From Polaromonas sp. (GTDB lineage: Bacteria > Pseudomonadota > Gammaproteobacteria > Burkholderiales > Burkholderiaceae_C), in the NCBI RefSeq assembly GCF_013817205.1, contig NZ_JACDDD010000009.1, positions 1-64,000 on the forward strand: 64,000 nt of DNA, read 5' to 3'. Below the pieces are notes generated by a model that was not told the origin of the DNA, made no database searches, and worked only from the letters and a program-made list of their open reading frames with translations. Below are positions 38,585 through 49,893 of the stretch, in pieces; the stretch's first letter is position 1; the number at the start of each line of letters is the position of its first letter. Both the position numbers and the translations under genes were made by a program.

Positions 38585-39538
38585 TCACAGCTTGAGCTCC
38601 CAGGTCTCGCCGATCAGGTCCTTGCCGAAGCCGGTATAGGGGTCGCTTTTGACAAGTTTGAAGCCGCGCCGTGCGTAGATGTCGCGGGCGCTGCCCAAGC
38701 AGCTGTTGGTCCAGAGCACCATCTTCTTGTAGCCCTTGCTGCGCGCAAAGGCGATGCACTCGTCGGTCAATAGTCCGCCCAGTCCCCGGCCGCGCGCCTG
38801 CGCCGTCAGGAGCAGCATGCGCAACTGGGCCACGGTCGGCGACTTGCGCACGACGAACACCGATCCCACGCGCTGCCCGTCCAGCTCCGCGATCCAGCAG
38901 CGTTCCCAGGCCGGCTGATGCTTGCGCAGGTAGCTGGCCACGATGTCTGCCACCAACGCTTCGAACTCGCTGTGCCAGCCGTACTCGCGCGCGTAAATTT
39001 CGCCGTGTTGTTGCACCACCCAGCTCATGTCGCCGGGTTGCGGATCGCGCAGCACCACGCCAGAGGTCGTTCGGGCTGGCGCCGGATTGAGCAGGCGCTG
39101 CACCGTGGCCAGCGCATCGGTCAGCGCCTGCTGCGCGGGCGCGCTCAGGGGCGCGAGCAGGGCTGCGGCCTCGTCGCGCGAGCGTTGCTGCAGCGGCGCA
39201 AACACATGGTAGCCGGCCTCAGTCAGGCGCAGCAGGCTTTGCCGGGCATCGGCAGGTGAGGCCGAGCGAACCATCCAACCCTTGTTTTCAAACCGGCGCA
39301 GGATGCGACTCAGATAGCCGGCGTCCAGCGCCAGATCGCGACCGAGTTCGCTGGCCGTCGGCTGGTCGCGGTGGGCCAGTTCGTAAAGCACGCGCACCTC
39401 GGTCAATGAAAACTCGCTGCCAAGGTAAGGGGCCAGCACGCCAATACGCTGCGTGTAGAAGCGGTTGAACCCGCGCACGGCCTTCACGTGGGCGGCGGGC
39501 ACGGGAGGAAAGGTGGCGGCTTGCATCGCTGCCATCAT
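38585..39538 (-). CDS. MarR-GNAT fusion: transcriptional regulator with acetyltransferase domain
   Basis: 317 residues. Residues 15-150 form a MarR winged helix (FSLTEVRVLYELAHRDQPTA, ELGRDLALDAGYLSRILRRF, ENKGWMVRSASPADARQSLL). Residues 160-317 form a GNAT fold with the acetyl-CoA loop LLLTAQARGRGLGGLL and YARRGFKLVKSDPYTGFGKD. This fusion is a recurring family; the acetyl acceptor is unknown. The next MarR gene starts further upstream on the same strand, so two MarR-type proteins are consecutive. Confidence 0.92.
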   Translation of the reverse strand: MMAAMQAATFPPVPAAHVKAVRGFNRFYTQRIGVLAPYLGSEFSLTEVRVLYELAHRDQPTASELGRDLALDAGYLSRILRRFENKGWMVRSASPADARQSLLRLTEAGYHVFAPLQQRSRDEAAALLAPLSAPAQQALTDALATVQRLLNPAPARTTSGVVLRDPQPGDMSWVVQQHGEIYAREYGWHSEFEALVADIVASYLRKHQPAWERCWIAELDGQRVGSVFVVRKSPTVAQLRMLLLTAQARGRGLGGLLTDECIAFARSKGYKKMVLWTNSCLGSARDIYARRGFKLVKSDPYTGFGKDLIGETWELKL

Positions 39539-39558: not shown

Positions 39559-40047
39559 TCAAGTAATTGATGGATGGCCTGCGCCCGCGACACCGCGGCT
39601 GATCAGGGTGCGCAGAATTTTTTTCAACGCCATGACGTCGCGCTGGCTGAAGCCCTGGAGCAGGGTGTTTTCGTGCACCTTGGCTTGTGCCAGCAGTGCA
39701 GCCACGGTATCGCGCCCCCGTTGCGTCTCAAAAACTAGGGTGCGCCGGGCGTCGGCCGGATCGGCGCCGCGCCGAACCCAGCCGGCTTTTTCCATGCGCT
39801 GGACAAGCTTGGTCAGGGTCGGTTGCTGGGCCAGGATCTCGCGCGCCAGCTCGCCAATGGTCAGGCCGTCACCGTCTGACAGTGTGGCCAGCAGGCGCCA
39901 TTCGAGCGAACCCAGGCCGGTCGCCTGCACCTGGGCGTGAAATTCCCGGTACACGGTGTGGCTGGCGCGCGCCAGCAGGTAAGAGAGGTAGTCGTCAATG
40001 AACTTGCCGGGTGGAGCGGGGCAGTCCGGTGCGGGTTTTCGGCTCAA
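39559..40047 (-). CDS. MarR-family regulator, probable controller of the adjacent catabolic operon
   Basis: 162 residues. I chose the TTG at 40047 because GAAGG lies just upstream and because the reading in front of it has no Met before the conserved region. The winged-helix core is LGSLEWRLLATLSDGDGLTI, GELAREILAQQPTLTKLVQR and MEKAGWVRRGADPADARRTL. It is divergent from the flavin reductase-NicX-like operon, and a 12-bp palindrome lies in the shared 63-base gap. Pyridine catabolic clusters are often controlled by MarR repressors (NicR, PicR), which fits the context. Confidence 0.88.
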   Translation of the reverse strand: MSRKPAPDCPAPPGKFIDDYLSYLLARASHTVYREFHAQVQATGLGSLEWRLLATLSDGDGLTIGELAREILAQQPTLTKLVQRMEKAGWVRRGADPADARRTLVFETQRGRDTVAALLAQAKVHENTLLQGFSQRDVMALKKILRTLISRGVAGAGHPSIT

Positions 40048-40085: not shown

Positions 40086-40097
40086 ATGAATATTCAT
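40086..40097. promoter_or_regulatory. Palindromic MarR operator candidate
   Basis: ATGAATATTCAT is a perfect 12-bp palindrome midway between the MarR start and the flavin reductase start. It overlaps an AT-rich stretch (CATATATTAT) that could be the operon -10 region. Confidence 0.6.
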
Positions 40098-40110: not shown

Positions 40111-40629
40111 ATGAATGCTGCCTTGCAAGCCATCCCGCAGATTGCCCCGCCACTGGACAGCCGGGCGCTGCGTACGGCGCTGGGCCAGTTCGCCACCGGC
40201 ATCACAGTGGTGACCACACGCGCTGCGGACGGCGCTTTGGTCGGCCTCACCGTCAATTCTTTTTCGGCCTTGTCCCTGGAGCCGCCAATGATCCTCTGGT
40301 CGCTGCGTTGCAGCTCGCCCAGCCTGCCGGTGTTTGAAGCTGCGGAACGGTTTGTCGTCAACGTGCTGGCCGAGGCGCAAGTCGAAGTCTCGCGCAGGTT
40401 TGCCCTGCCGGTGGCCGACAAGTTTGAAGGCGTGGCGCATGCTGAAAACGTCTGGGGCCAGCCTTTGTTGCACGGCGCCGCTGCCTGGTTTGAATGCCGC
40501 ATCCTGTCGCGGCAGGTGGCGGGGGACCATTGCCTGTTTATTGCTGAGGTCGAGCGGTTCACTTCGTCGGAAGCGACGCCGCTGCTCTTTCATGCGGGCG
40601 GCTATTTCGCCCTCGGTTCACGCCTTTAA
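40111..40629 (+). CDS. Flavin reductase (HpaC/DIM6-NTAB family)
   Basis: 172 residues. Family blocks: LRTALGQFATGITVVTTRA, VGLTVNSFSALSLEPPMILW, FEAAERFVVNVLAEAQVEVS and the C-terminal GGYFAL. It supplies reduced FMN/FAD to a separate oxygenase component. In this operon the acyl-CoA-dehydrogenase-fold protein at 42489 is the likely recipient. It is the first gene of a five-gene run with gaps of 3-15 bases. Confidence 0.92.
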   Translation: MNAALQAIPQIAPPLDSRALRTALGQFATGITVVTTRAADGALVGLTVNSFSALSLEPPMILWSLRCSSPSLPVFEAAERFVVNVLAEAQVEVSRRFALPVADKFEGVAHAENVWGQPLLHGAAAWFECRILSRQVAGDHCLFIAEVERFTSSEATPLLFHAGGYFALGSRL

Positions 40630-40640
40630 CAAGGAATTGC

Positions 40641-41687
40641 ATGCTGCAGGAACGCATCGAAGCCCGCTGGATAGACTGTTTTGCCGATACCTTTGCGCTT
40701 TGCGACGTGAAGCGCGGCGACACGGCCGCCATCCTGTCGGAGACGCAATCGCGGCCGGTCAATGTGCAACTCGCCGAATTGGCGCTAGCACGCCTGGGCG
40801 CGCGGGCCTTTCACTTGATGCTACCCACCCCCCGGCTGGCCGCTCCGGTGCCGGTGCGTTCCACCGGCGCATCGGACGCCATCGGGCAGCTCGCGCCGGT
40901 GGTTCAGGCGCTGGCTGCCTGCACGTTTGTAGCGGACCTGACGGTGGAGGGTCTGCTGCATGCGGCTGAACTGCCTGCCATCCTGCAGGGCGGTGCCCGG
41001 GTGTTGATGGTGTCCAACGAACATCCTGAAATCCTCGAGCGCTGCGTGCCCGATCCGACACTCGAGCCCAAGGTCAAGGCCGGCATCAAGCTGCTCAGGA
41101 ATGCCAAGGCCATGCACGTGACTTCCAGCGCAGGCACAGACCTGCGCGTTTCGCTGGCCGGCGCGCAGGCCGGCGGCGGCTGGGGCTACACCGCCCGACC
41201 CGGCACGATTTCGCACTGGCCGGGTGGCCTGTGCCTGGCTTTTCCGGCCAGAGGCAGCGTTAACGGGACCCTGGTGCTGGCCCCAGGCGACGTCAACCTG
41301 ACCTTCAAGCGTTACCTCGAGCAGCCGGTCGTGCTGACGATAAAAGACGATTTTGTGACCGACATCGCCGGGCAACACGTCGACGCCGAGTTGATGCGCA
41401 GCTACTGGGCGGCGTGGGGCGACCGCGAAGCCTACGCGGTGTCGCACGTGGGCTGGGGCATGAACCCGAAGGCGCGCTGGGATGCCATGACCATGTACGA
41501 CAAGAAGGATTTCAACGGCACAGAGCTGCGTGCCTTTGCAGGCAACTTCCTGTATTCAACCGGCGCCAACGAAGTCGCCGGCCGCCACACATTGGGGCAT
41601 TTCGACCTGCCGTTGCGAGGCTGCACCGTGACGCTCGATGGCCAGGTGGTGGTGGACGCAGGAAGTCTTGTCGGTGAGTTGGCCTGA
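40641..41687 (+). CDS. NicX-like 2,5-dihydroxypyridine 5,6-dioxygenase family protein
   Basis: 348 residues, M29-peptidase-like fold. I recognise close resemblance to NicX of the nicotinate pathway: RNAKAMHVTSSAGTDLRV, HWPGGLCLAFP, LRSYW-like LMRSYWAAWGDREAYAVSHV, GWGMNPKARWDAM, RAFAGNFLYSTGANEVAG and GHFDLPLRGCTV. The three positions matching the NicX iron ligands are kept (His269, His320, Asp322). NicX opens the ring of 2,5-dihydroxypyridine to N-formylmaleamate. The actual substrate here may differ, because the neighbours include a CoA ligase that the nicotinate pathway does not have. Confidence 0.85.
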   Translation: MLQERIEARWIDCFADTFALCDVKRGDTAAILSETQSRPVNVQLAELALARLGARAFHLMLPTPRLAAPVPVRSTGASDAIGQLAPVVQALAACTFVADLTVEGLLHAAELPAILQGGARVLMVSNEHPEILERCVPDPTLEPKVKAGIKLLRNAKAMHVTSSAGTDLRVSLAGAQAGGGWGYTARPGTISHWPGGLCLAFPARGSVNGTLVLAPGDVNLTFKRYLEQPVVLTIKDDFVTDIAGQHVDAELMRSYWAAWGDREAYAVSHVGWGMNPKARWDAMTMYDKKDFNGTELRAFAGNFLYSTGANEVAGRHTLGHFDLPLRGCTVTLDGQVVVDAGSLVGELA

Positions 41688-41690
41688 GCC

Positions 41691-42473
41691 ATGAGCTTGC
41701 CCGCATATTTTGAGCAAGGCGACGGTGATACCGCCATTTTTTTGCTGCACGGTGTGGGTGGTGGCAAAGCGGCCTGGGTGCACAACCAGCCGGTATTGGC
41801 GGCAGCGGATTACAAAACGGTCGCCTGGGATATGCCGGGTTATGGCGACTCCCGGGCGATTTTGCCGTGTACCAACGCGCTGCTGGCCGATGCGCTGAGA
41901 ACATTGATGGCCCATATCGGCGCCAAACGCAATGTGCTGCTGGGCCACAGCATGGGCGGCATGATTGCGCAGGAACTGGCCGCGTTACATCCCTCACTGG
42001 TGCACGGACTGGTGCTCTACAGCACGTCACCGGCCTTCGGCAAGCCGGATGGCGCTTGGCAGCAGCAGTTCCTGCAAAGCCGCTTTTCCCCGCTGGATCA
42101 AGGCCTGGGCATGGACGGACTGGCCGAAAAAATCGTGCCGGCCATGTTTGCCCCCGGTGCGGGTCCGTCGCGACTCGCCGAGGCCACCAGCTTGATGAGC
42201 CGCGTGCCCGCAGACAGCTACCGGGCTGCGCTCTCGGCCATTGTTTCCTTCAACCGGCTGGCTGCGCTCGGCGACATTGCCGTGCCCACCCTGTGCCTGG
42301 CCGGTGAACTGGACCTCAATGCACCGCCGGCGGTCGTGGAAAAAATGGCCAACCGCATCCCCGGCGCGCAATACGCATGCCTTCCCGGCGTGGGCCATAT
42401 CTCCAACATCGAGCGCCCCGTGCTGTTCAACAGCGCGGTGCTGGATTTCCTGAAGCACCACTTTCCGACCTGA
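41691..42473 (+). CDS. Alpha/beta hydrolase, candidate deformylase (NicD-like context)
   Basis: 260 residues. Oxyanion loop LLHGVGGGKAAW, nucleophile elbow GHSMGG (Ser87), acid in LAGELDLNAPP, and His in GVGHISNIERP give a complete triad. It starts 3 bases after the NicX-like gene. In nicotinate and picolinate clusters the NicX product is cleaved by an alpha/beta hydrolase (N-formylmaleamate deformylase), so the same step is the first hypothesis. Sequence alone cannot separate this from a CoA-thioesterase or ring-cleavage hydrolase. Confidence 0.85.
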   Translation: MSLPAYFEQGDGDTAIFLLHGVGGGKAAWVHNQPVLAAADYKTVAWDMPGYGDSRAILPCTNALLADALRTLMAHIGAKRNVLLGHSMGGMIAQELAALHPSLVHGLVLYSTSPAFGKPDGAWQQQFLQSRFSPLDQGLGMDGLAEKIVPAMFAPGAGPSRLAEATSLMSRVPADSYRAALSAIVSFNRLAALGDIAVPTLCLAGELDLNAPPAVVEKMANRIPGAQYACLPGVGHISNIERPVLFNSAVLDFLKHHFPT

Positions 42474-42488
42474 ACCGAGGACCCTGCC

Positions 42489-43775
42489 ATGTCTGCCTTG
42501 CCTGTTTCTTCACCATCGGCCGGACGTTACACTCCGCCTTCGATCGCTGGCGACTACAGCGAACTCACGCCCCAACAAACCGAGCTGCTGGCGATTGCCT
42601 CCCGCCTGGGGCGCGAGAAATTCGCTCCGCGCGCGCAGCAGATCGACCGCGACGCGGTGTTCCCCTTTGACAACTATGCCGACCTGCGCGAGGCCGGATT
42701 GCTCGGCATTTGCGTTCCGCAAGCGCATGGCGGGTGGGGCGCTGACTTTGCGACCTACGTGATGACGGCGGCAGAAATCGGCCGCCATTGTGGCGCGACT
42801 GCCCTGACGCTGAACATGCACGTGAGCTCGACCATGTGGACCGGCTTCATCGCCGACGACCTCGACATGACGCCGGAGCAGCGCGCCAACCACGAGGCGC
42901 ACCGCAAGATCCACTATCAGCGCGTGGTGGGTGAGGGCAAGGTGTATTCACAGCCTTTTTCCGAAGGCGGCGCGGCAGCTGCGGGCAAAGCTCCTTTCGG
43001 TACGCTCGCCAAAAAAGTGGAGGGCGGCTACCTCGTCAACGGGAAGAAGATTTTTGCCTCGCTGGCCGGCGCGGCCGACTACTACGGCATTCTGTGCACG
43101 CTGGACAAGCCGGGCGCTACCCAGCGTGATTCGCTTTACCTCGCAGTGGACAAAAACCTGGAAGGCGTCAGCGTCACCGGCGACTGGGACCCGCTAGGCA
43201 TGCGCGGCACGGTCTCGCGCACGCTGATCTTCAAGGATGTGTTTGTGCCCGAGATCGAGCGCCTGATTCCCGAGGGGGTGTATGCCCAGGCTGCGTTGCG
43301 CTGGCCGCACATGTTTGCCACCTTGTCGCCGACCTATATGGGCATCGCCCAGGCCGCCTATGACTTCACCGTGCAGTACCTGCGCGGTGAGGTGCCGGGT
43401 ACACCGCCGGTGAAGCGCCGCATGTACCCGACCAAACAGATCGCGGTGGCGGAAATGAAGGTGCGGCTCGAGCAGACGCGTGCGATCTTTTTGCAGAATG
43501 CCCGTGCGGCCCGGGTTGACCCCTCCAAGGAAATCCGTCTTGGGCTGTACGCGGCGCATTACACCATCATGGAAAACGCCAATGAAATCTGCCGACTCGC
43601 GGTGCGTACCTGCGGCGGCCAGTCCATGCTCAAGACGCTGCCGCTGGAACGCATGTACCGCGATTCCCGCTGCGGCTCGCTGATGTTGCCGTGGACCGCC
43701 GAACTTTGCATCGACCGGTTGGGCCGCGAATGCCTGTACGAGCCGGGTGAACAGGACGAACAGGCCGTGCTGTAG
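42489..43775 (+). CDS. Acyl-CoA-dehydrogenase-fold flavoprotein lacking the usual catalytic Glu
   Basis: 428 residues, longer than typical acyl-CoA dehydrogenases because of a 20-residue N-terminal extension. FAD-binding regions are recognisable (LGICVPQAHGGWGADFATYV, SLAGAADYYGIL). The C-terminal loop that normally reads EGT-x-EI with the catalytic base is instead SLMLPWTAEL, and the GYxxE block is changed to SMLKTLPLERMYRDSR. With a flavin reductase in the same operon, it could be an oxygenase of this fold, as with the IacA-IacG indole-3-acetate pair, rather than a dehydrogenase. Confidence 0.82.
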   Translation: MSALPVSSPSAGRYTPPSIAGDYSELTPQQTELLAIASRLGREKFAPRAQQIDRDAVFPFDNYADLREAGLLGICVPQAHGGWGADFATYVMTAAEIGRHCGATALTLNMHVSSTMWTGFIADDLDMTPEQRANHEAHRKIHYQRVVGEGKVYSQPFSEGGAAAAGKAPFGTLAKKVEGGYLVNGKKIFASLAGAADYYGILCTLDKPGATQRDSLYLAVDKNLEGVSVTGDWDPLGMRGTVSRTLIFKDVFVPEIERLIPEGVYAQAALRWPHMFATLSPTYMGIAQAAYDFTVQYLRGEVPGTPPVKRRMYPTKQIAVAEMKVRLEQTRAIFLQNARAARVDPSKEIRLGLYAAHYTIMENANEICRLAVRTCGGQSMLKTLPLERMYRDSRCGSLMLPWTAELCIDRLGRECLYEPGEQDEQAVL

Positions 43776-43787
43776 GCCGGGGTCGGA

Positions 43788-45266
43788 ATGAACCTCGCGC
43801 AGATCATAAAGCGGCACGCGCAGTTCTCGCCGCGGCAGGTGGCGATTCATGCGGAAGGGCAAGACATCACTTATCCCGCCTTGTGGCGGCGCATTGAGAG
43901 CGCGACGAGGGTGTTGCTGGCGGTCGGTGTGCAGCCGGGCGACCGGGTGGCCTGGCTGGGCTTCAATGACCCGGTCATGCTGGTTCTGCTGTTTGCGCTT
44001 TCTCGCCTCGGTGCGATTTTGCTGCCGCTCAACCACAGGCTGGCCGCGCCCGAACACGCGGCGATTCTTGGCCATGCGGGGGTGCGTCTGGTGATCAGCG
44101 ACAGCGCACACGATAGCGCGGCGGCCGCGCTGACCGTGGTCCCGGGCTATCGGCTGCTGCCTGCCGCCGGGCTGGCCGCGGACGGCGGCGGCACTGCCCA
44201 CACCGGCGTTCTCGCGGGCGGGTACACCTCGCCGGTGCTGCTGGTGCATACCTCGGGCACCACCGGTCGGCCCAAAGGCGCCTTGCACACGCAATCGGGC
44301 CTGATCTGGAACTGCGTGATTTCCGCCCATGCGCATGAACTCGGGCAGGACGACCATGTGCTGAGCGTGTTGCCCCTGTTTCATGTTGGCGGCCTGTGCA
44401 TCCAGACCCTGCCGGCCCTGCATGCCGGTGCCACCGTGACCCTCCGTGCCCGTTTTGACGCGGCGGCCTGGCTAGCCGATGTGGCCAGGCGGCGGCCCAC
44501 GCTGTCGCTGATGGTGCCCGCCACCTTGCGCGCGGTGCTGGATCATATCGATTTTGCGTCGACCGATCTGTCTTCCCTGCGGTTTCTGGCTGCGGGCTCT
44601 TCCACGATTCCCTCGTCGATGATTGCGGCCATGCATGTGCGTGGTGTGCCGCTTGGCCAGGTTTATGGCGCGACCGAAACCGGCCCAGTCTCGATCTACC
44701 TGCGCCGTGCGGATGCGATGCAACACGTGGGTGCGACGGGCAAGGCTGGCTTGCATGTGGATGTGAAACTGGTCAACACGCTGGGCGAAACCGTGACCCC
44801 GGGTGAGGTCGGCGAAATATGGGTGCGTGGGCCCAATGTCATGGCTGCGTATTGGGCCGACGCGGACAACCCGGCATTTGCCGAAGGCTGGTTTCACACC
44901 GGCGACCTGGGGCGCTGTGATGCCGCCGGCTTTTACGAAGTGGTGGGGCGCTCGAAAGACATGATCATCTCCGGTGGGGAAAACGTCTACCCGGCCGAGA
45001 TTGAAAACCTGCTGGCTGATTGCCCGGAGATCCTGGAGGCCGCTGTGGTCGGCCAGCCCGACGCACGCTGGGGCGAGGTGGTGGTGGCGGTTGTGGTGCG
45101 CAAGCCCGGGGCCGAACTTGACGCGGCCCAAGTGCTGCAATTGTTTGACGGCCGCCTGGGTCGTTTCAAACATCCCAAACGCATTGTGTTCTGCGAGGCC
45201 TTGCCCAAAACTGCTCTGGGCAAGGTGCAGAAAGCCGGCCTGCTCGCAAGCCTCGCTGCTCAGTAA
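43788..45266 (+). CDS. AMP-forming acyl/aryl-CoA ligase
   Basis: 492 residues, ANL superfamily. The P-loop VHTSGTTGRPKGALHTQSGL, A5 motif YGATETGPVS, A7 GWFHTGDLGRCD, A8 hinge ISGGENVYPAEIE and A10 PKTALGKVQKAG with the catalytic Lys are all present. It activates a carboxylic acid to its CoA thioester; chain type cannot be read from sequence. It is the last gene of the five-gene operon and its end overlaps the converging fadB-like gene by seven bases. Confidence 0.93.
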   Translation: MNLAQIIKRHAQFSPRQVAIHAEGQDITYPALWRRIESATRVLLAVGVQPGDRVAWLGFNDPVMLVLLFALSRLGAILLPLNHRLAAPEHAAILGHAGVRLVISDSAHDSAAAALTVVPGYRLLPAAGLAADGGGTAHTGVLAGGYTSPVLLVHTSGTTGRPKGALHTQSGLIWNCVISAHAHELGQDDHVLSVLPLFHVGGLCIQTLPALHAGATVTLRARFDAAAWLADVARRRPTLSLMVPATLRAVLDHIDFASTDLSSLRFLAAGSSTIPSSMIAAMHVRGVPLGQVYGATETGPVSIYLRRADAMQHVGATGKAGLHVDVKLVNTLGETVTPGEVGEIWVRGPNVMAAYWADADNPAFAEGWFHTGDLGRCDAAGFYEVVGRSKDMIISGGENVYPAEIENLLADCPEILEAAVVGQPDARWGEVVVAVVVRKPGAELDAAQVLQLFDGRLGRFKHPKRIVFCEALPKTALGKVQKAGLLASLAAQ

Positions 45267-47422
45267 ACCGGCTGGTGCTTGCGAATGGCCGCCTTGACTT
45301 CGTCGGTCAATAGGAAGCCGGAGCCAAATTTCGCAGCCAGTTGCGCGGCCCGCTCCTCAAATGCCTCGATCCCCATGCCATAGATGAACTGCATCGCCCC
45401 GCCAGTCCAGGCGGGAAAGCCGATGCCAAAGATGGATCCGATGTTGGCGTCGTGCACGCTGGTCAACACGTTTTCACTGAGGCAGCGCGCGGTTTCCACC
45501 GCCTGCCGGTACAGCAGACGATCCTTGATGTCGTTGATATCCCAATTCAGGTTCGATTTTTCGAACAGGAGTTTGAGCTCGGGCCACAGCGATTTATTCG
45601 CGCCTTTTTCTTCGGGGTAATCGTAGAAGCCGGCACCGGCGACACGGCCGTTGCGGTTGAACTCCTTGACCATGCGCTCTACGATCAGTTCGCCCGGCGT
45701 GGCGATATAGGTTTTGTTATCGGCCACATAGTCAGCGCGGGTCTGGTCCAGCACGTGCACGCTCAACGACAGGGCGGTTTCGTCCAGCACGGCGAGCGGG
45801 CCGACAGGCATGCCGCACTGGACGCCGGCGTTTTCTATCACAGCAGCAGGTATGCCTTCGCCCAGCATGGCTGCACCTTCCATCACAAAAGTGCCGAAGG
45901 TGCGGCTGGTATAAAAGCCACGCGAGTCGTTGACCACAATGGGGATCTTGCCAAGCGCCTGGACATAGTCAAAGGCCCGCGTCACGGTTTCGTCCTTGGT
46001 CTGCTTGCCTCGGATGATCTCCACCAGTTTCATTTTGTCGACCGGGCTGAAGAAGTGGATGCCGATGAAATTGTCCGGGTGTGCACTTGCCGTGGCCAGC
46101 CCGCTGATCGGCAGGGTAGACGTGTTCGATGCAAAAAAGCCGCCAGGTGCGAGCAGGGGCTCGGCTTCCTGCGTGACTTTGGCTTTCAGGTCCCGGCGCT
46201 CGAACACGGCTTCGATGATCAGGTCGCAACCGGCCAAGTCTGCCACCTGGTCGGTGGCCTGGATACGGGCGAGCAGGGCGTCCTGCTCAGTTGGGCTCAT
46301 GCGGCCCTTGTCCACGCGTGCCTGCGTCAGTTTGGCGCTGTAGGCCTTGCCGGTATCGGCCTTGTCCTGGCTCACGTCTCTGAGCACGGTGCTGATACCG
46401 CGGCTGGCCTGGGCGTAAGCAATGCCCGCACCCATCATGCCGGCGCCTAACAGGCCGACTTTCTGCGGCTTGTAACGCGGGACATCTTTCGGACGCGAGC
46501 GGCCCGACTTGATCGCGTTCATGTTGAAGAAGAAGGTGTTAATCATGTTCTTGGCCACGGAGCTCACGATCAGCCGGGCCAGGTAACGCGACTCGATGCG
46601 CAGCGCCGTGTCGAAGTCGACCTGCGCACCTTCGACCATGGCGGCCAGCGCGTATTCGGGGGCGGGGTAGAGGCCGCGCGTTTTCTGCTTGAGAACCGCC
46701 GGCGCTACGGCGAGCATGCCGGCGATTTGCGGGTTGGCAGGCGTGCCACCAGGCATCTTGTAGTTTTTGTCGTCCCAAGGGTGATGCGCGGGTGCGGCGG
46801 CCCCATCATGCGTCGCTATCCAGGCCAGCGCTGCAGGGCGCAGCGCGCCGGCGTTCGGCACCAGTTCTTGCACCAGTCCCAGCTCCAGCGCCTCACGCGG
46901 ATTGAACAGCTTGCTCTCCAGAATGAAGGGCTGCGCGCCCATCAGGCCCAGCAGGCGCGTCATCTTGGTGATGCCGCTGGCGCCCGGAATCAGACCCAGC
47001 GTGATTTCGGGCAGGCCGAACTGGATTTTGTTGTCATCGACGGCAATACGGTAGTGGCCAACCAGCGCCACCTCCCACCCGCCACCCAGCGCAGTGCCGT
47101 TGAGACAGCTGACCACTGGCCTGCCCAGGGTTTCGAGGGTGCGGAAGTTCTTCTTGGTCTGCTCGATTTCGCGGAAAACCCCCGCAGCGTCGGACGCCTT
47201 CAGGCGCATCGTTGCCTTCAAATCGGCTCCTGCAAAGAATGTGCTTTTGCTCGAGGTCAGGATGATGCCGCGAATGGATTCCCGATCTTTGACCACCTGC
47301 GCGGTGACTTCGGTCAGGTCGGTTTGCCACTGCGCGCACATGGTGTTGACCGGCGAGCCTTCCTCATCGAAGGTCAGGGTGGCGATGCCATCGCTCAGTT
47401 CGTACTTGATGGTTTTCATCAC
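45260..47422 (-). CDS. Multifunctional enoyl-CoA hydratase/3-hydroxyacyl-CoA dehydrogenase
   Basis: 720 residues. The crotonase half has the oxyanion motifs FFAGADLK and [13 protein letters not shown]. The dehydrogenase half begins [20 protein letters not shown] and includes [20 protein letters not shown] and [12 protein letters not shown]. It performs the middle two steps of beta-oxidation as FadB/FadJ-type alpha subunit. Start could be either of two adjacent ATG codons. It overlaps the thiolase gene by four bases (ATGA). Confidence 0.94.
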
Positions 47423-48624
47423 ACTCTTTCCACAATCGTTGCAATGCCCATTCCGCCGCCGACACAGAGCGTGGCTAGGCCGTAACGCAGCTTGCGCCGG
47501 TGAAGCTCGTCGATCAGGGTGCCGAGAATCATGGCGCCGGTCGCACCCAGCGGATGGCCCATGGCGATGGCGCCGCCGTTGACATTGACCCTGTCATGCG
47601 GCACCTTCATCTCCTTCATGAAACGCATGACGACAGCCGCAAAAGCCTCGTTGACCTCGAACAGGTCGATCTGGTCGATCGTGAGGCCGGCCTTGGCCAG
47701 TGCCTTGCGCGCTGCCGGCATGGGGCCGGTCAGCATGATGGTCGGGTCGGCACCACTTAATGCCACCGCGACGATGCGGGCTCGCGGCGTCAGGCCGTGG
47801 TTTTTACCCGCAGCCTCCGAACCGACCAGAACAGCTGCTGCGCCATCGACGATGCCCGAGGAGTTGCCAGCGTGGTGTACGTGGTGAATACGTTCGACGT
47901 GTGGGTAACGGGTCAGGGCGACCTGATCAAACCCCATGCCTCCCATTTGTTCAAAAGCCGGCCGGAGCGAGGCCAGTCCCTCCAGCGTGGTGTGCGGCTT
48001 GATGAATTCGTCCTGAGCCAGAATGATCTGGTCGAGAAAGTCCTTTACCGGTACCACCGAGTCGTCGAAATAACCCGCTTCACGCGCCTTGGCCGCGCGT
48101 TTCTGGCTTTCCATGGCGAATGCGTCCACATCTGCGCGGCTGAAGCCCTCGATGGTGGCGATCAGGTCGGCGCCTATGCCCTGCGGCACAAAGGCAGTGG
48201 CGCTGTTGGTTTCCGGGTCCTGCGCCCACGCGCCGCCGTCTGAGCCGATGGGCACGCGGCTCATGCTTTCAACGCCGCCCGCCACCACCAGGTCCTCCCA
48301 ACCCGAACGCACCTTTTGCGCGGCCATGTTGACGGCCTCCAGGCCGGAGGCGCAAAACCGGTTGACCTGCACGCCTGAAGCGCGAAAGTCCCAACCCGCC
48401 TTGAGCGCGGCAACTTTGGCAATCACCGAACCCTGCTCGCCGATGGGCGACACCACGCCCATTACCACGTCATCGACCTGTGCTGTGTCGAAGCCGTTGC
48501 GCCGCTGCAGTTCGGTCAGCACGCCGGCCAGCAGGTTGACAGGCTTGACCTCGTGCAGGCTGCCGTCTTTTTTTCCCTTGCCGCGCGGCGTGCGGATGGC
48601 GTCGTAAATGAATGCTTCGGTCAT
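47419..48624 (-). CDS. Acetyl-CoA C-acyltransferase (thiolase)
   Basis: 401 residues, beta subunit of the fatty-acid oxidation pair. Acyl-enzyme Cys is in [17 protein letters not shown]; catalytic His residues are in FEVNEAFA and [14 protein letters not shown]; the second Cys is in [10 protein letters not shown]. The ATGA overlap with the fadB-like gene indicates coupled translation of a trifunctional complex. Confidence 0.94.
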
Positions 48625-48729
48625 GGAAGGCTCCTGCTGTAAAAGAGAGTGCAGGAACGAGTATATTCATTTCACCAAGCAACTGCTTTTCATAAATATG
48701 GCTCCGGCCTCCAACGTGACAGGTGACCC

Positions 48730-49893
48730 ATGATCGACCGCACCCTTTTTTCCAGCGACCACGAGGCCTTCCGTGACGCCTTTCGCAAGTTTTGCGACAA
48801 GGAGGTCGCGCCGTTTCATGAACAGTGGGAGGAACAGGGCTACGTGGACCGAGCAGTCTGGAACAAGGCCGGTGAAAACGGCTTCTTGTGCATGACCATG
48901 CCGCAAGCCTATGGTGGAGCGGGCGCCGACAAGCTGTACTCTGTGGTGCAGATGGAGGAGTTGGCGCGGGGCGGCTACAGCGGCATTGGCTACGGCCTGC
49001 ACAGCGAAATTGTTGCGCCCTACATCCTGCACTACGGCACCGAAGCACAAAAGCTCAAGTACCTGCCCAAACTCGCCAGCGGTGAAATGGTCGGCGCGAT
49101 TGCGATGAGCGAACCCGCTGCCGGTTCGGATTTGCAGGGGGTGAAGGCCACGGCGATCAAACAGGCCGACGGCAGTTACCTGCTCAACGGCAGCAAGACC
49201 TTCATCACCAATGGCTGGCATGCCGACCTGGTGGTGGTGGTGGCCAAAACCAATCCGGCGGCGGGCGCCAAGGGCACCAGCTTGCTGCTGGTCGAGCGCG
49301 GCATGCCTGGCTTCTCGGTGGGCAAGCGCCTGAAAAAACTCGGTCTCAAAGCGCAGGACACGTCGGAACTCTTTTTCTCCGACGTCAGCGTTCCGGCGGC
49401 CAACCTGCTGGGCGGCGAAGCGCATGAAAACCGTGGCTTCATCTGCCTGATGGAGCAACTGCCCTGGGAGCGGCTACAGATCGCCATCACGGCGGTCGCC
49501 TCGGCGCAGGCGGCCATCGACTGGACGGTGGACTATGTGAAGGAGCGCAAGGTGTTTGGCCAGCCCGTGGCTAGCTACCAGAACACGCGTTACACCCTGG
49601 CTGAGCTGCAGACGCAGGTTCAGGTGGCGCGGGTTTTTGTTGACAAATGCACCAAGCTCATCGCAGCGGACAAACTCGACACAGCTACAGCCAGCATGGC
49701 CAAGTACTGGACCACCGACCTGCAGTGCAAAGTCATGGACGAATGTGTGCAGCTGTTTGGCGGTTACGGCTACATGTGGGAATACCCGATCACGCGAGCT
49801 TATGCCGATGCCCGGGTGCAACGGATTTACGGCGGCACCAACGAAATCATGAAGGAAGTGATTTCGCGCGCGATGGGGCTGGGTGTCAGGTAG
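48730..49893 (+). CDS. Acyl-CoA dehydrogenase
   Basis: 387 residues with the standard three-domain architecture: MTMPQAYGGAGADKLYSVVQ, AIAMSEPAAGSDLQGVKATA, TFITNGWHADLVVVVAKT, QLFGGYGYMWEYPITRAYAD and RIYGGTNEIMKEVISRAMG. In the last motif Gly replaces the Glu of medium-chain enzymes, so the base is probably the Glu in LPWERLQIAI, the arrangement of isovaleryl- and long-chain-type dehydrogenases. It is divergent from the thiolase gene and supplies the first beta-oxidation step. Confidence 0.92.
   Translation: MIDRTLFSSDHEAFRDAFRKFCDKEVAPFHEQWEEQGYVDRAVWNKAGENGFLCMTMPQAYGGAGADKLYSVVQMEELARGGYSGIGYGLHSEIVAPYILHYGTEAQKLKYLPKLASGEMVGAIAMSEPAAGSDLQGVKATAIKQADGSYLLNGSKTFITNGWHADLVVVVAKTNPAAGAKGTSLLLVERGMPGFSVGKRLKKLGLKAQDTSELFFSDVSVPAANLLGGEAHENRGFICLMEQLPWERLQIAITAVASAQAAIDWTVDYVKERKVFGQPVASYQNTRYTLAELQTQVQVARVFVDKCTKLIAADKLDTATASMAKYWTTDLQCKVMDECVQLFGGYGYMWEYPITRAYADARVQRIYGGTNEIMKEVISRAMGLGVR

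What the first reader, a model, noticed from the sequence alone, without database searches (positions are those of the whole stretch)
40111..45266. Uncharacterised CoA-dependent (N-hetero)aromatic degradation operon
Seen: five genes with gaps of 3-15 bases, combining a NicX-like ring-cleaving dioxygenase with all three iron ligands, an alpha/beta hydrolase, a flavin reductase, an acyl-CoA-dehydrogenase-fold protein and a CoA ligase, under a divergent MarR. Known: NicX plus deformylase occurs in nicotinate and picolinate pathways, which have no CoA ligase; flavin reductase plus acyl-CoA-dehydrogenase-fold oxygenase occurs in IacA/IacG. Inference: a carboxylated heteroaromatic is activated to CoA, hydroxylated, then cleaved. 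Maleamate amidase and maleate isomerase genes are absent here.
Basis: partly seen in the sequence, partly recalled or inferred. Interest (0 to 1): 0.75.

Follow-up and report, generated by a model that had tools for sequence, protein, structure and literature searches.

The report
Conserved operon, probably for anthranilate breakdown
A five-gene bacterial operon, inherited together with its own repressor gene and DNA switch, looks like an unrecognised route that opens the ring of an amino-aromatic compound, most likely anthranilate made from tryptophan, using a relative of an enzyme known from the breakdown of pyridines.

Summary
The five genes, the divergent MarR gene and the 3-15 bp gaps are real. 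Of the 80 best NicX-like loci, 53 keep hydrolase, ACAD-like gene and CoA ligase together downstream. The MarR gene travels with a palindromic operator, ATGAATATTCAT, at 40086-40097. The NicX-like protein keeps the iron ligands of P. putida NicX but sits in a separate, well-supported clade and lacks Glu177, which holds the pyridine nitrogen. The ACAD-like protein lacks the dehydrogenase Glu. Neighbours point to anthranilate rather than a heteroaromatic: kynA/kynU/kynB beside the operon in 15 of 15 Pandoraea loci (none of the other 65); an NF006101-type aryl-CoA hydroxylase gene upstream in 6 of 80, and in one string with ACAD and nicX in an Acidimicrobiales genome. Against: genome co-occurrence is unspecific, since a benzoate-pathway control scored alike, and four Pseudomonadales genomes have the operon without either gene set. 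Best reading: a CoA-linked anthranilate hydroxylation and ring-cleavage module; the substrate is inferred, not shown.

The parts
39559..40047 (-). MarR-family regulator, divergent from the operon (probable TTG start at 40047)
   Evidence: Pfam MarR_2 3.1e-14; start codon; orthologue within 3 kb upstream of nicX in 35 of 80 loci
40086..40097 (.). Perfect 12-bp palindrome ATGAATATTCAT, probable MarR operator, 13 bp before the flavin reductase start
   Evidence: Exact in 10 of 10 Polaromonas loci and 14 of 15 Pandoraea loci; ATGA-N4-TCAT form within 1.2 kb upstream of nicX in 39 of 77 loci scored (3 of 80 too short), in 34 of 35 with the clustered MarR gene; background 0.005 per kb
40111..40629 (+). 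NAD(P)H:flavin reductase (HpaC/HsaB/FerA type)
   Evidence: Pfam Flavin_Reduct 2e-39; best PDB match p-hydroxyphenylacetate 3-hydroxylase reductase component 5zc2, 2.8e-34
40641..41687 (+). NicX-like non-haem Fe(II) dioxygenase of a separate clade
   Evidence: 7cn3 4.5e-60; ligands H269, S306, H320, D322 and E177->G180; tree; model TM 0.91 to 7cn3
41691..42473 (+). alpha/beta hydrolase (thioesterase, cleavage-product hydrolase or deformylase; undecided)
   Evidence: Abhydrolase_1 4.7e-29; closest NCBIfam PcaD-like, 141.9 bits, under its cut-off of 255.85
42489..43775 (+). ACAD-fold flavoenzyme without the dehydrogenase Glu; probable oxygenase
   Evidence: RDSRCG(S/A)LMLPW where dehydrogenases have IYEGT; MLPW in 63 of 63; Foldseek rank 1 5gj7 (putative acyl-CoA dehydrogenase) and rank 3 5z8t (near-identical chain, titled flavin-containing monooxygenase)
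43788..45266 (+). AMP-forming acyl/aryl-CoA ligase
   Evidence: AMP-binding 2.4e-75; best PDB matches 8weu (fatty-acyl-CoA synthase) and 8wev (feruloyl-CoA synthetase)

Best explanation
A MarR-controlled module for aerobic, CoA-linked breakdown of anthranilate (2-aminobenzoate) or a close hydroxylated derivative, in several hosts supplied by tryptophan via kynurenine. Inferred steps: (1) the ligase makes anthraniloyl-CoA, or another ligase does so where this gene is missing; (2) the flavin reductase feeds the ACAD-fold enzyme, which oxygenates the ring, most likely at C5, para to the amine; (3) the NicX-like dioxygenase cleaves the resulting p-aminophenol-type ring, as thioester or free acid, next to the new hydroxyl; (4) the alpha/beta hydrolase removes CoA or splits the cleavage product. 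Shown by sequence: operon, regulator and operator, iron site, loss of the pyridine-binding Glu, loss of the dehydrogenase Glu, neighbours. Inferred: substrate, position of hydroxylation, order of steps, and whether the ring is opened as CoA ester.
For: Pandoraea: kynA, kynU, kynB (each over its NCBIfam cut-off in the one representative scanned) next to the operon in 15 of 15 loci, on the strand of and beyond the FlvR-MarR pair. In 6 of 80 loci an NF006101-type gene (named salicylyl-CoA 5-hydroxylase/oxidoreductase; I recall the 2-aminobenzoyl-CoA monooxygenase/reductase as its homologue) lies upstream, over cut-off in the three scanned; in L014 and L015 it comes with a CoA ligase and a RidA gene. 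Acidimicrobiales L164: such a gene, ACAD and nicX consecutive, gaps 47 and 27 bp (1054.5 bits, just under the cut-off of 1078). Shinella variant operon: CoA ligase, KynA, ABC transporter genes, KynU and an NF006101-type gene within 24 kb, the three named ones over cut-off. Own genome: kynB, kynU, kynA and an NF006101-type gene, all over cut-off. Chemistry (my inference): 5-hydroxyanthranilate is 2,5-dihydroxypyridine with ring N replaced by C-COOH and 2-OH by NH2; His105 and His189 are kept and Glu177 is Gly, Val, Ser or Thr in 80 of 80. Glutamine-synthetase-like genes stand where the ligase is missing in rhizobial and Acidimicrobiales variants, which fits an amine. 5-Hydroxyanthraniloyl-CoA is a reported product of 2-aminobenzoyl-CoA monooxygenase/reductase when NADH is short (passages of PMC3534580).
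Against: The kyn neighbourhood among the 80 loci is confined to one genus; none of the other 65 loci has a kyn gene in its flanks. NF006101's name speaks of salicylate, so those neighbours do not by themselves name anthranilate. Co-occurrence is not specific: in 150 family genomes NF006101 is over cut-off in 21 of 22 operon genomes against 67 of 128 others (p 5e-5), but the control BoxB gives 20 of 22 against 59 of 128 (p 5e-5). All 18 operon genomes already have an NF006101 gene elsewhere, so the operon need not be their only route. In a wider set NF006101 is over cut-off in 12 of 32 (two more full-length ones just under) and KynU in 17 of 32; the four Pseudomonadales genomes have neither. 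In Acidimicrobiales the nicX type at >=67% identity shows no KynU association (4 of 11 against 46 of 187, p 0.29), and the one kyn cluster scanned there has a 3-hydroxyanthranilate dioxygenase. No step has a biochemical test.
Confidence: 0.4

Rival explanations
1. Shunt salvage: the NF006101-type enzyme (ABM) hydroxylates anthraniloyl-CoA, partly giving 5-hydroxyanthraniloyl-CoA; the operon rescues this dead end, with the ACAD-fold enzyme working like TdaE (CoA-ester oxygenolysis) and the NicX-like enzyme opening the ring.
For: ABM over cut-off in 18 of 18 and 21 of 22 operon genomes in two sets; ABM-ACAD-nicX string in L164; TdaE precedent: an ACAD-like flavoprotein dioxygenase acting on a catabolic CoA shunt product (passages of PMC8283759); side product reported.
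Against: ABM is over cut-off in only 12 of 32 diverse operon genomes, two more just under; the window operon has its own CoA ligase; the benzoate control is as strongly associated.
Confidence: 0.17
2. Indole route: ACAD plus flavin reductase oxidise indole to indoxyl, the NicX-like enzyme cleaves its HO-C=C-N bond to N-formylanthranilate, the hydrolase deformylates, and the ligase makes anthraniloyl-CoA for ABM.
For: Matches NicX bond chemistry, the gene set, and the ligase as a dispensable last step; indole degraders use acyl-CoA-dehydrogenase-like indole oxygenases (passages of PMC6221969).
Against: Would need another anthranilate sink in operon genomes without ABM (not tested there); fits kynBUA adjacency less well. 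No IifC or IacA sequence was at hand to compare.
Confidence: 0.13
3. One reading: a carboxylated N-heteroaromatic is activated to CoA, hydroxylated and cleaved.
For: NicX fold, iron ligands, His105 and His189 kept; CoA ligase present.
Against: Glu177, which binds pyridine N1 in NicX, is lost in all 20 operon-clade rows of the tree and is Glu (7) or Gln (3) in the 10 outgroup rows; no pyridine-pathway neighbour noticed; the ligase is missing from many operons.
Confidence: 0.13
4. Another amino- or hydroxy-benzoate (3-hydroxyanthranilate, an aminosalicylate, salicylate) is the substrate.
For: NF006101 is named salicylyl-CoA 5-hydroxylase; Aminobacter has a gentisate/5-aminosalicylate-dioxygenase-like cupin (both models under cut-off) and an FAA hydrolase next to its variant operon; the Acidimicrobiales kyn cluster scanned goes through 3-hydroxyanthranilate.
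Against: In Pandoraea L044 the kyn genes next to the operon are kynA, kynU and kynB, and no kynurenine 3-hydroxylase gene was seen by eye in that stretch.
Confidence: 0.17

Closest known systems
2,5-Dihydroxypyridine 5,6-dioxygenase NicX of Pseudomonas putida (7cn3)
   Same: Fold (TM 0.91, 36% identity in the structural alignment), four protein iron ligands, R293, H105, H189
   Different: Separate clade (support 100/99, inner branch 1.17); E177 lost; no maleamate amidase or maleate isomerase homologue in the window; partners differ
2-Aminobenzoyl-CoA pathway of Azoarcus evansii and Arthrobacter Rue61a
   Same: CoA activation of anthranilate; a gene of what I recall as that enzyme's family (NF006101) neighbours the operon in some genomes
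   Different: That pathway uses one flavoenzyme giving a non-aromatic ketone (passages); this operon has a separate ACAD-fold flavoenzyme with reductase and a NicX-like dioxygenase
Nocardia opaca anthranilate route via 5-hydroxyanthranilate and gentisate (Cain 1968, seen only as cited in PMC4539516)
   Same: 5-hydroxylation of anthranilate
   Different: The enzyme for that route is called unreported in PMC6221969 (passages); here CoA activation and a NicX-like enzyme are inferred
TdaE, ACAD-like flavoprotein dioxygenase of tropone biosynthesis
   Same: ACAD-like enzyme, described as distinct from classical dehydrogenases and group D monooxygenases, acting on a CoA ester (passages)
   Different: Sequence not compared here; different pathway
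IacA and IifC indole oxygenases (named in PMC6221969; partners IacG, IifD recalled)
   Same: ACAD-like oxygenase, with a flavin reductase
   Different: Not comparable here, no sequence at hand; operon partners differ

Membership tests
NicX 2,5-dihydroxypyridine dioxygenase | Four protein iron ligands H265, S302, H318, D320 | tested here: met
   Of 80 sequences (window plus 79 loci): H265 80, S302 80, H318 79 (1 gap), D320 78 (1 gap, 1 Tyr)
NicX 2,5-dihydroxypyridine dioxygenase | Glu177 holding pyridine N1 and O1 | tested here: not met
   Gly 37, Val 35, Ser 7, Thr 1 of 80; Glu 7 and Gln 3 in 10 outgroup rows. Caveat: H105 also varies within the outgroup rows
NicX 2,5-dihydroxypyridine dioxygenase | Clade and gene context of pyridine pathways (maleamate amidase, maleate isomerase) | tested here: not met
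   Separate clade; no such homologue in the window
NicX 2,5-dihydroxypyridine dioxygenase | Activity on 2,5-dihydroxypyridine | not testable with these tools
   Needs purified enzyme
M29 aminopeptidase | Match to aminopeptidase models and closest fold | tested here: not met
   No Pfam or NCBIfam hit of any kind at E<=0.001; fold far nearer NicX than AmpT or PepS
Acyl-CoA dehydrogenase | Catalytic Glu in the IYEGT region | tested here: not met
   Leu400 or Pro401 at that place, depending on the gap, invariant in 63 of 63; the acyl-CoA dehydrogenases of two canonical clusters keep IYEGATE. The alternative isovaleryl-type position was judged by eye only
Two-component (group D) flavin monooxygenase | Flavin reductase partner in the operon | tested here: inconclusive
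   Present in the window and within 3 kb upstream in 42 of 80 loci; absent or undetected in the rest
Two-component (group D) flavin monooxygenase | Oxygenation of substrate with reduced flavin | not testable with these tools
   Needs assay
2-Aminobenzoyl-CoA (abm) pathway | NF006101-type monooxygenase/reductase in the operon | tested here: not met
   Not in the window operon; elsewhere in the same genome at C83:4149-6455, 1279.9 bits

The most novel reading that the evidence does not exclude
An undescribed aerobic anthranilate pathway in which an ACAD-fold oxygenase of a new type hydroxylates anthraniloyl-CoA and a NicX-family dioxygenase, so far tied to pyridines, cleaves a homocyclic amino-hydroxybenzoyl ring, possibly as its CoA thioester; widespread in Proteobacteria and in part in Acidimicrobiia, with a glutamylation-based variant in rhizobia and Acidimicrobiales.
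Probability: 0.33. Interest if true: 0.8.

Novelty: new variant of a known kind. Interest (0 to 1): 0.55.

Why it matters
It would give a function to a large clade whose plasmid-borne members are annotated 'peptidase M29' or not at all, extend NicX chemistry beyond pyridines, supply genes for the old observation that some bacteria handle anthranilate through 5-hydroxyanthranilate, and define a MarR operator kept across two classes of Proteobacteria. The test is cheap: five enzymes and a short substrate panel.

Tried and rejected
Plain aminopeptidase: rejected. Classical nicotinate/picolinate operon: rejected on clade, Glu177 and missing partners. Ordinary beta-oxidation dehydrogenase: rejected on the lost Glu.

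Genome co-occurrence as proof of the anthranilate link: dropped, because the BoxB control is equally associated. KynU in Acidimicrobiales as support: dropped, because the kyn cluster scanned there includes 3-hydroxyanthranilate 3,4-dioxygenase. L053 was first read as nicX-ACAD-ABM; it is only an OYE-type reductase of 379 aa and is not counted. L018's ABM is cut by the edge of the locus. My first gene caller picked antisense frames and was replaced; a recount by position changed ACAD from 66 to 65 and ligase from 61 to 60.

No box within one mismatch of the operator was found in the own-genome kyn and ABM stretches fetched, so shared control of kyn genes in this host has no support. Literature: searches found no paper; one found one, 19 five, 38 seven, 39 eight, 48 seventy-five (20 listed). 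I read passages of PMC3534580, PMC7910607, PMC6221969, PMC4539516 and PMC8283759, and only listings of the rest; none of these described this operon. Most subscription papers are not held.
Full report
Observation. The regulator lies divergently at about 39559-40047. The NicX-like protein has no Pfam or NCBIfam match at E<=0.001 but matches solved NicX at 4.5e-60, and its predicted structure (mean pLDDT 92.6) superposes on it at TM 0.91.

Conservation. Counted by position, the hydrolase is downstream of nicX in 68, the ACAD in 65 and the ligase in 60 of the 80 loci; 53 have all three; a flavin reductase lies within 3 kb upstream in 42 and the MarR in 35. Ten of the 80 are Polaromonas and 15 Pandoraea; among the other 55 the counts are 44, 41, 36, 17 and 10. 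Only 62 loci have 5.5 kb or more after nicX. In the bacterial family of the window, 25 of 150 sampled genomes have a hit, 22 of them at 61% identity or more. Of 20 family loci fetched with flanks, 7 show the CoA ligase; two of the other 13 lie on contigs under 5 kb.

Regulation. A perfect palindrome, ATGAATATTCAT, sits 13 bp before the first gene. It occurs exactly once in each of the 10 Polaromonas loci and the window (11 hits in 225 kb) and in 14 of 15 Pandoraea loci, in the gap between the divergent genes. The looser form ATGA-N4-TCAT is found within 1.2 kb upstream of nicX in 39 of 77 loci scored (3 of the 80 were too short), in 34 of the 35 with the clustered MarR, and at 0.005 per kb elsewhere in these loci; the 35th, L018, has the exact palindrome farther out. 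In shuffles of the 61-bp intergenic stretch such a palindrome arises in 1.2% of trials. Regulator, operator and operon thus form one inherited unit in these lineages.

NicX-like enzyme. P. putida NicX binds iron with His265, Ser302, His318 and Asp320 and holds its substrate with His105, Glu177 and His189; Glu177 contacts ring N1 and O1 (passages of PMC7910607). In 80 sequences (window plus 79 loci) Arg293, His105 and His189 are kept in all, the iron site in all but one or two (gaps, one Tyr), while Glu177 is Gly, Val, Ser or Thr in all 80. A tree of 30 proteins separates 20 operon and variant sequences from 10 others, four of them from plasmid clusters with pyridine-pathway-type genes, with support 100/99 and an inner branch of 1.17. 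The 10 others have Glu (7) or Gln (3) at 177; His105 and, once, His189 also vary among them, and one variant row (L172) has Tyr for His189, so single residues are not a perfect test. It works like NicX in fold and iron site, but by clade and Glu177 it is not filed as the 2,5-dihydroxypyridine enzyme.

ACAD-fold enzyme. Where dehydrogenases have IYEGT, the orthologues read RDSRCG(S/A)LMLPW, with MLPW in 63 of 63 (window plus 62); the catalytic Glu falls on Leu400 or Pro401, depending on a one-residue gap. A closely similar motif is in the ten variant operons checked, while the dehydrogenases of two canonical clusters keep IYEGATE. The nearest solved structures are 5gj7 and 5z8t, near-identical chains, one titled flavin-containing monooxygenase; no paper naming them was found. 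With a flavin reductase in the same operon, oxygenation is the likely role. TdaE shows that an ACAD-like enzyme can also cleave CoA esters oxidatively (passages of PMC8283759).

Substrate. In all 15 Pandoraea loci, genes for tryptophan 2,3-dioxygenase, kynureninase and arylformamidase lie just beyond the reductase-MarR pair, on the same strand; none of the other 65 loci has one in its flanks, so this is one genus, not 15 independent cases. In L014, L015, L018, L036, L039 and L067 (four titled Burkholderiales, one Betaproteobacteria, one Proteobacteria) an NF006101-type gene lies in the 8 kb upstream, over cut-off in the three scanned (L015, L036, L039), in L014 and L015 with a ligase and a RidA gene. 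NCBIfam names that family salicylyl-CoA 5-hydroxylase/oxidoreductase; that 2-aminobenzoyl-CoA monooxygenase/reductase belongs to it is my recall. In Acidimicrobiales L164 such a gene forms a string with the ACAD and nicX genes. In Shinella a variant operon is followed by a CoA ligase, KynA, ABC transporter genes, KynU and an NF006101-type gene. The window's own genome has kynB, kynU, kynA and an NF006101-type gene. Anthranilate dioxygenase is over cut-off in 0 of 19 operon genomes tested (weaker Rieske matches in all 19) and NF006101 in 18 of 18 (14 Pandoraea, 2 Polaromonas, 1 Comamonadaceae, 1 Kordiimonadales).

Results against. The family co-occurrence (KynU 20 of 22 against 76 of 128; KynA 21 of 22 against 75 of 128; NF006101 21 of 22 against 67 of 128) is matched by the benzoate-pathway control BoxB, 20 of 22 against 59 of 128, so it reflects aromatic metabolism in general. 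In 32 more diverse operon genomes NF006101 is over cut-off in 12, with two more full-length genes just under, and KynU in 17; the four Pseudomonadales genomes have neither. In 198 genomes of the order of G182 (titled Acidimicrobiales) the close nicX type shows no KynU association (4 of 11 against 46 of 187, p 0.29), the 49-59% type does (16 of 20 against 34 of 178, p 8e-8), both together 17 of 28 against 33 of 170 (p 2e-5); but this split was made after seeing the data, and the kyn cluster scanned there carries 3-hydroxyanthranilate 3,4-dioxygenase.

Reading. Anthranilate, or a hydroxyanthranilate, as substrate is the reading that joins the Pandoraea, Proteobacteria, Shinella and L164 neighbourhoods. 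5-Hydroxyanthranilate maps onto 2,5-dihydroxypyridine with ring N replaced by the carboxyl-bearing carbon, which would explain why the Glu that touches N1 is gone while the His near the 2-substituent stays; this mapping is my inference. Known aerobic anthranilate routes are via catechol, gentisate, 3-hydroxyanthranilate and 2-aminobenzoyl-CoA (passages of PMC4539516); the gentisate enzyme is called unreported in PMC6221969 (passages). Whether the operon is a full alternative route, a salvage of 5-hydroxyanthraniloyl-CoA, or an indole-to-anthranilate route cannot be settled from sequence.

Noticed in passing
window 38585-39538 (-): MarR domain fused to a GNAT acetyltransferase, next to the operon's own MarR; found beside the operon in the 10 Polaromonas loci and one Rhodoferax locus.
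   Followed up: no
window 45260-49893: An enoyl-CoA hydratase/3-hydroxyacyl-CoA dehydrogenase fusion and a thiolase converge on the operon (the former overlaps the ligase end by 7 bp) and an acyl-CoA dehydrogenase diverges from the thiolase (Pfam); kept next to the operon mainly in Polaromonas.
   Followed up: partly
L109 10001-17729, L110 6263-18376, L133 3404-11045: Rhizobial variant: nicX-ACAD-long hydrolase with a polyketide-cyclase-like N-terminal domain-TetR-glutamine-synthetase-like-permease, flavin reductase before or after; no ligase in the operon; Aminobacter adds a gentisate-dioxygenase-like cupin, an FAA hydrolase and a nitrilase-like gene.
   Followed up: partly
L165-L174: Acidimicrobiales variant: hydrolase, ACAD, nicX and a glutamine-synthetase-like gene, in several loci with a Peptidase_C26 amidotransferase, a LigB-type dioxygenase and P450-type genes nearby (one representative of each scanned).
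   Followed up: partly
L118 11221-12480, L120 7096-8328, L122 6947-8173: A Pfam Beta-lactamase (serine hydrolase) type gene sits between hydrolase and ACAD in some family members.
   Followed up: no
L112 6548-9050: In Terrirubrum a nicX relative follows a gene annotated as 4-hydroxyphenylacetate 3-hydroxylase N-terminal domain protein: another unstudied NicX-family context.
   Followed up: no
L039 4433-5509 and 8001-9044: One locus carries a NicX relative from the other side of the tree and the operon type 2.5 kb apart.
   Followed up: no
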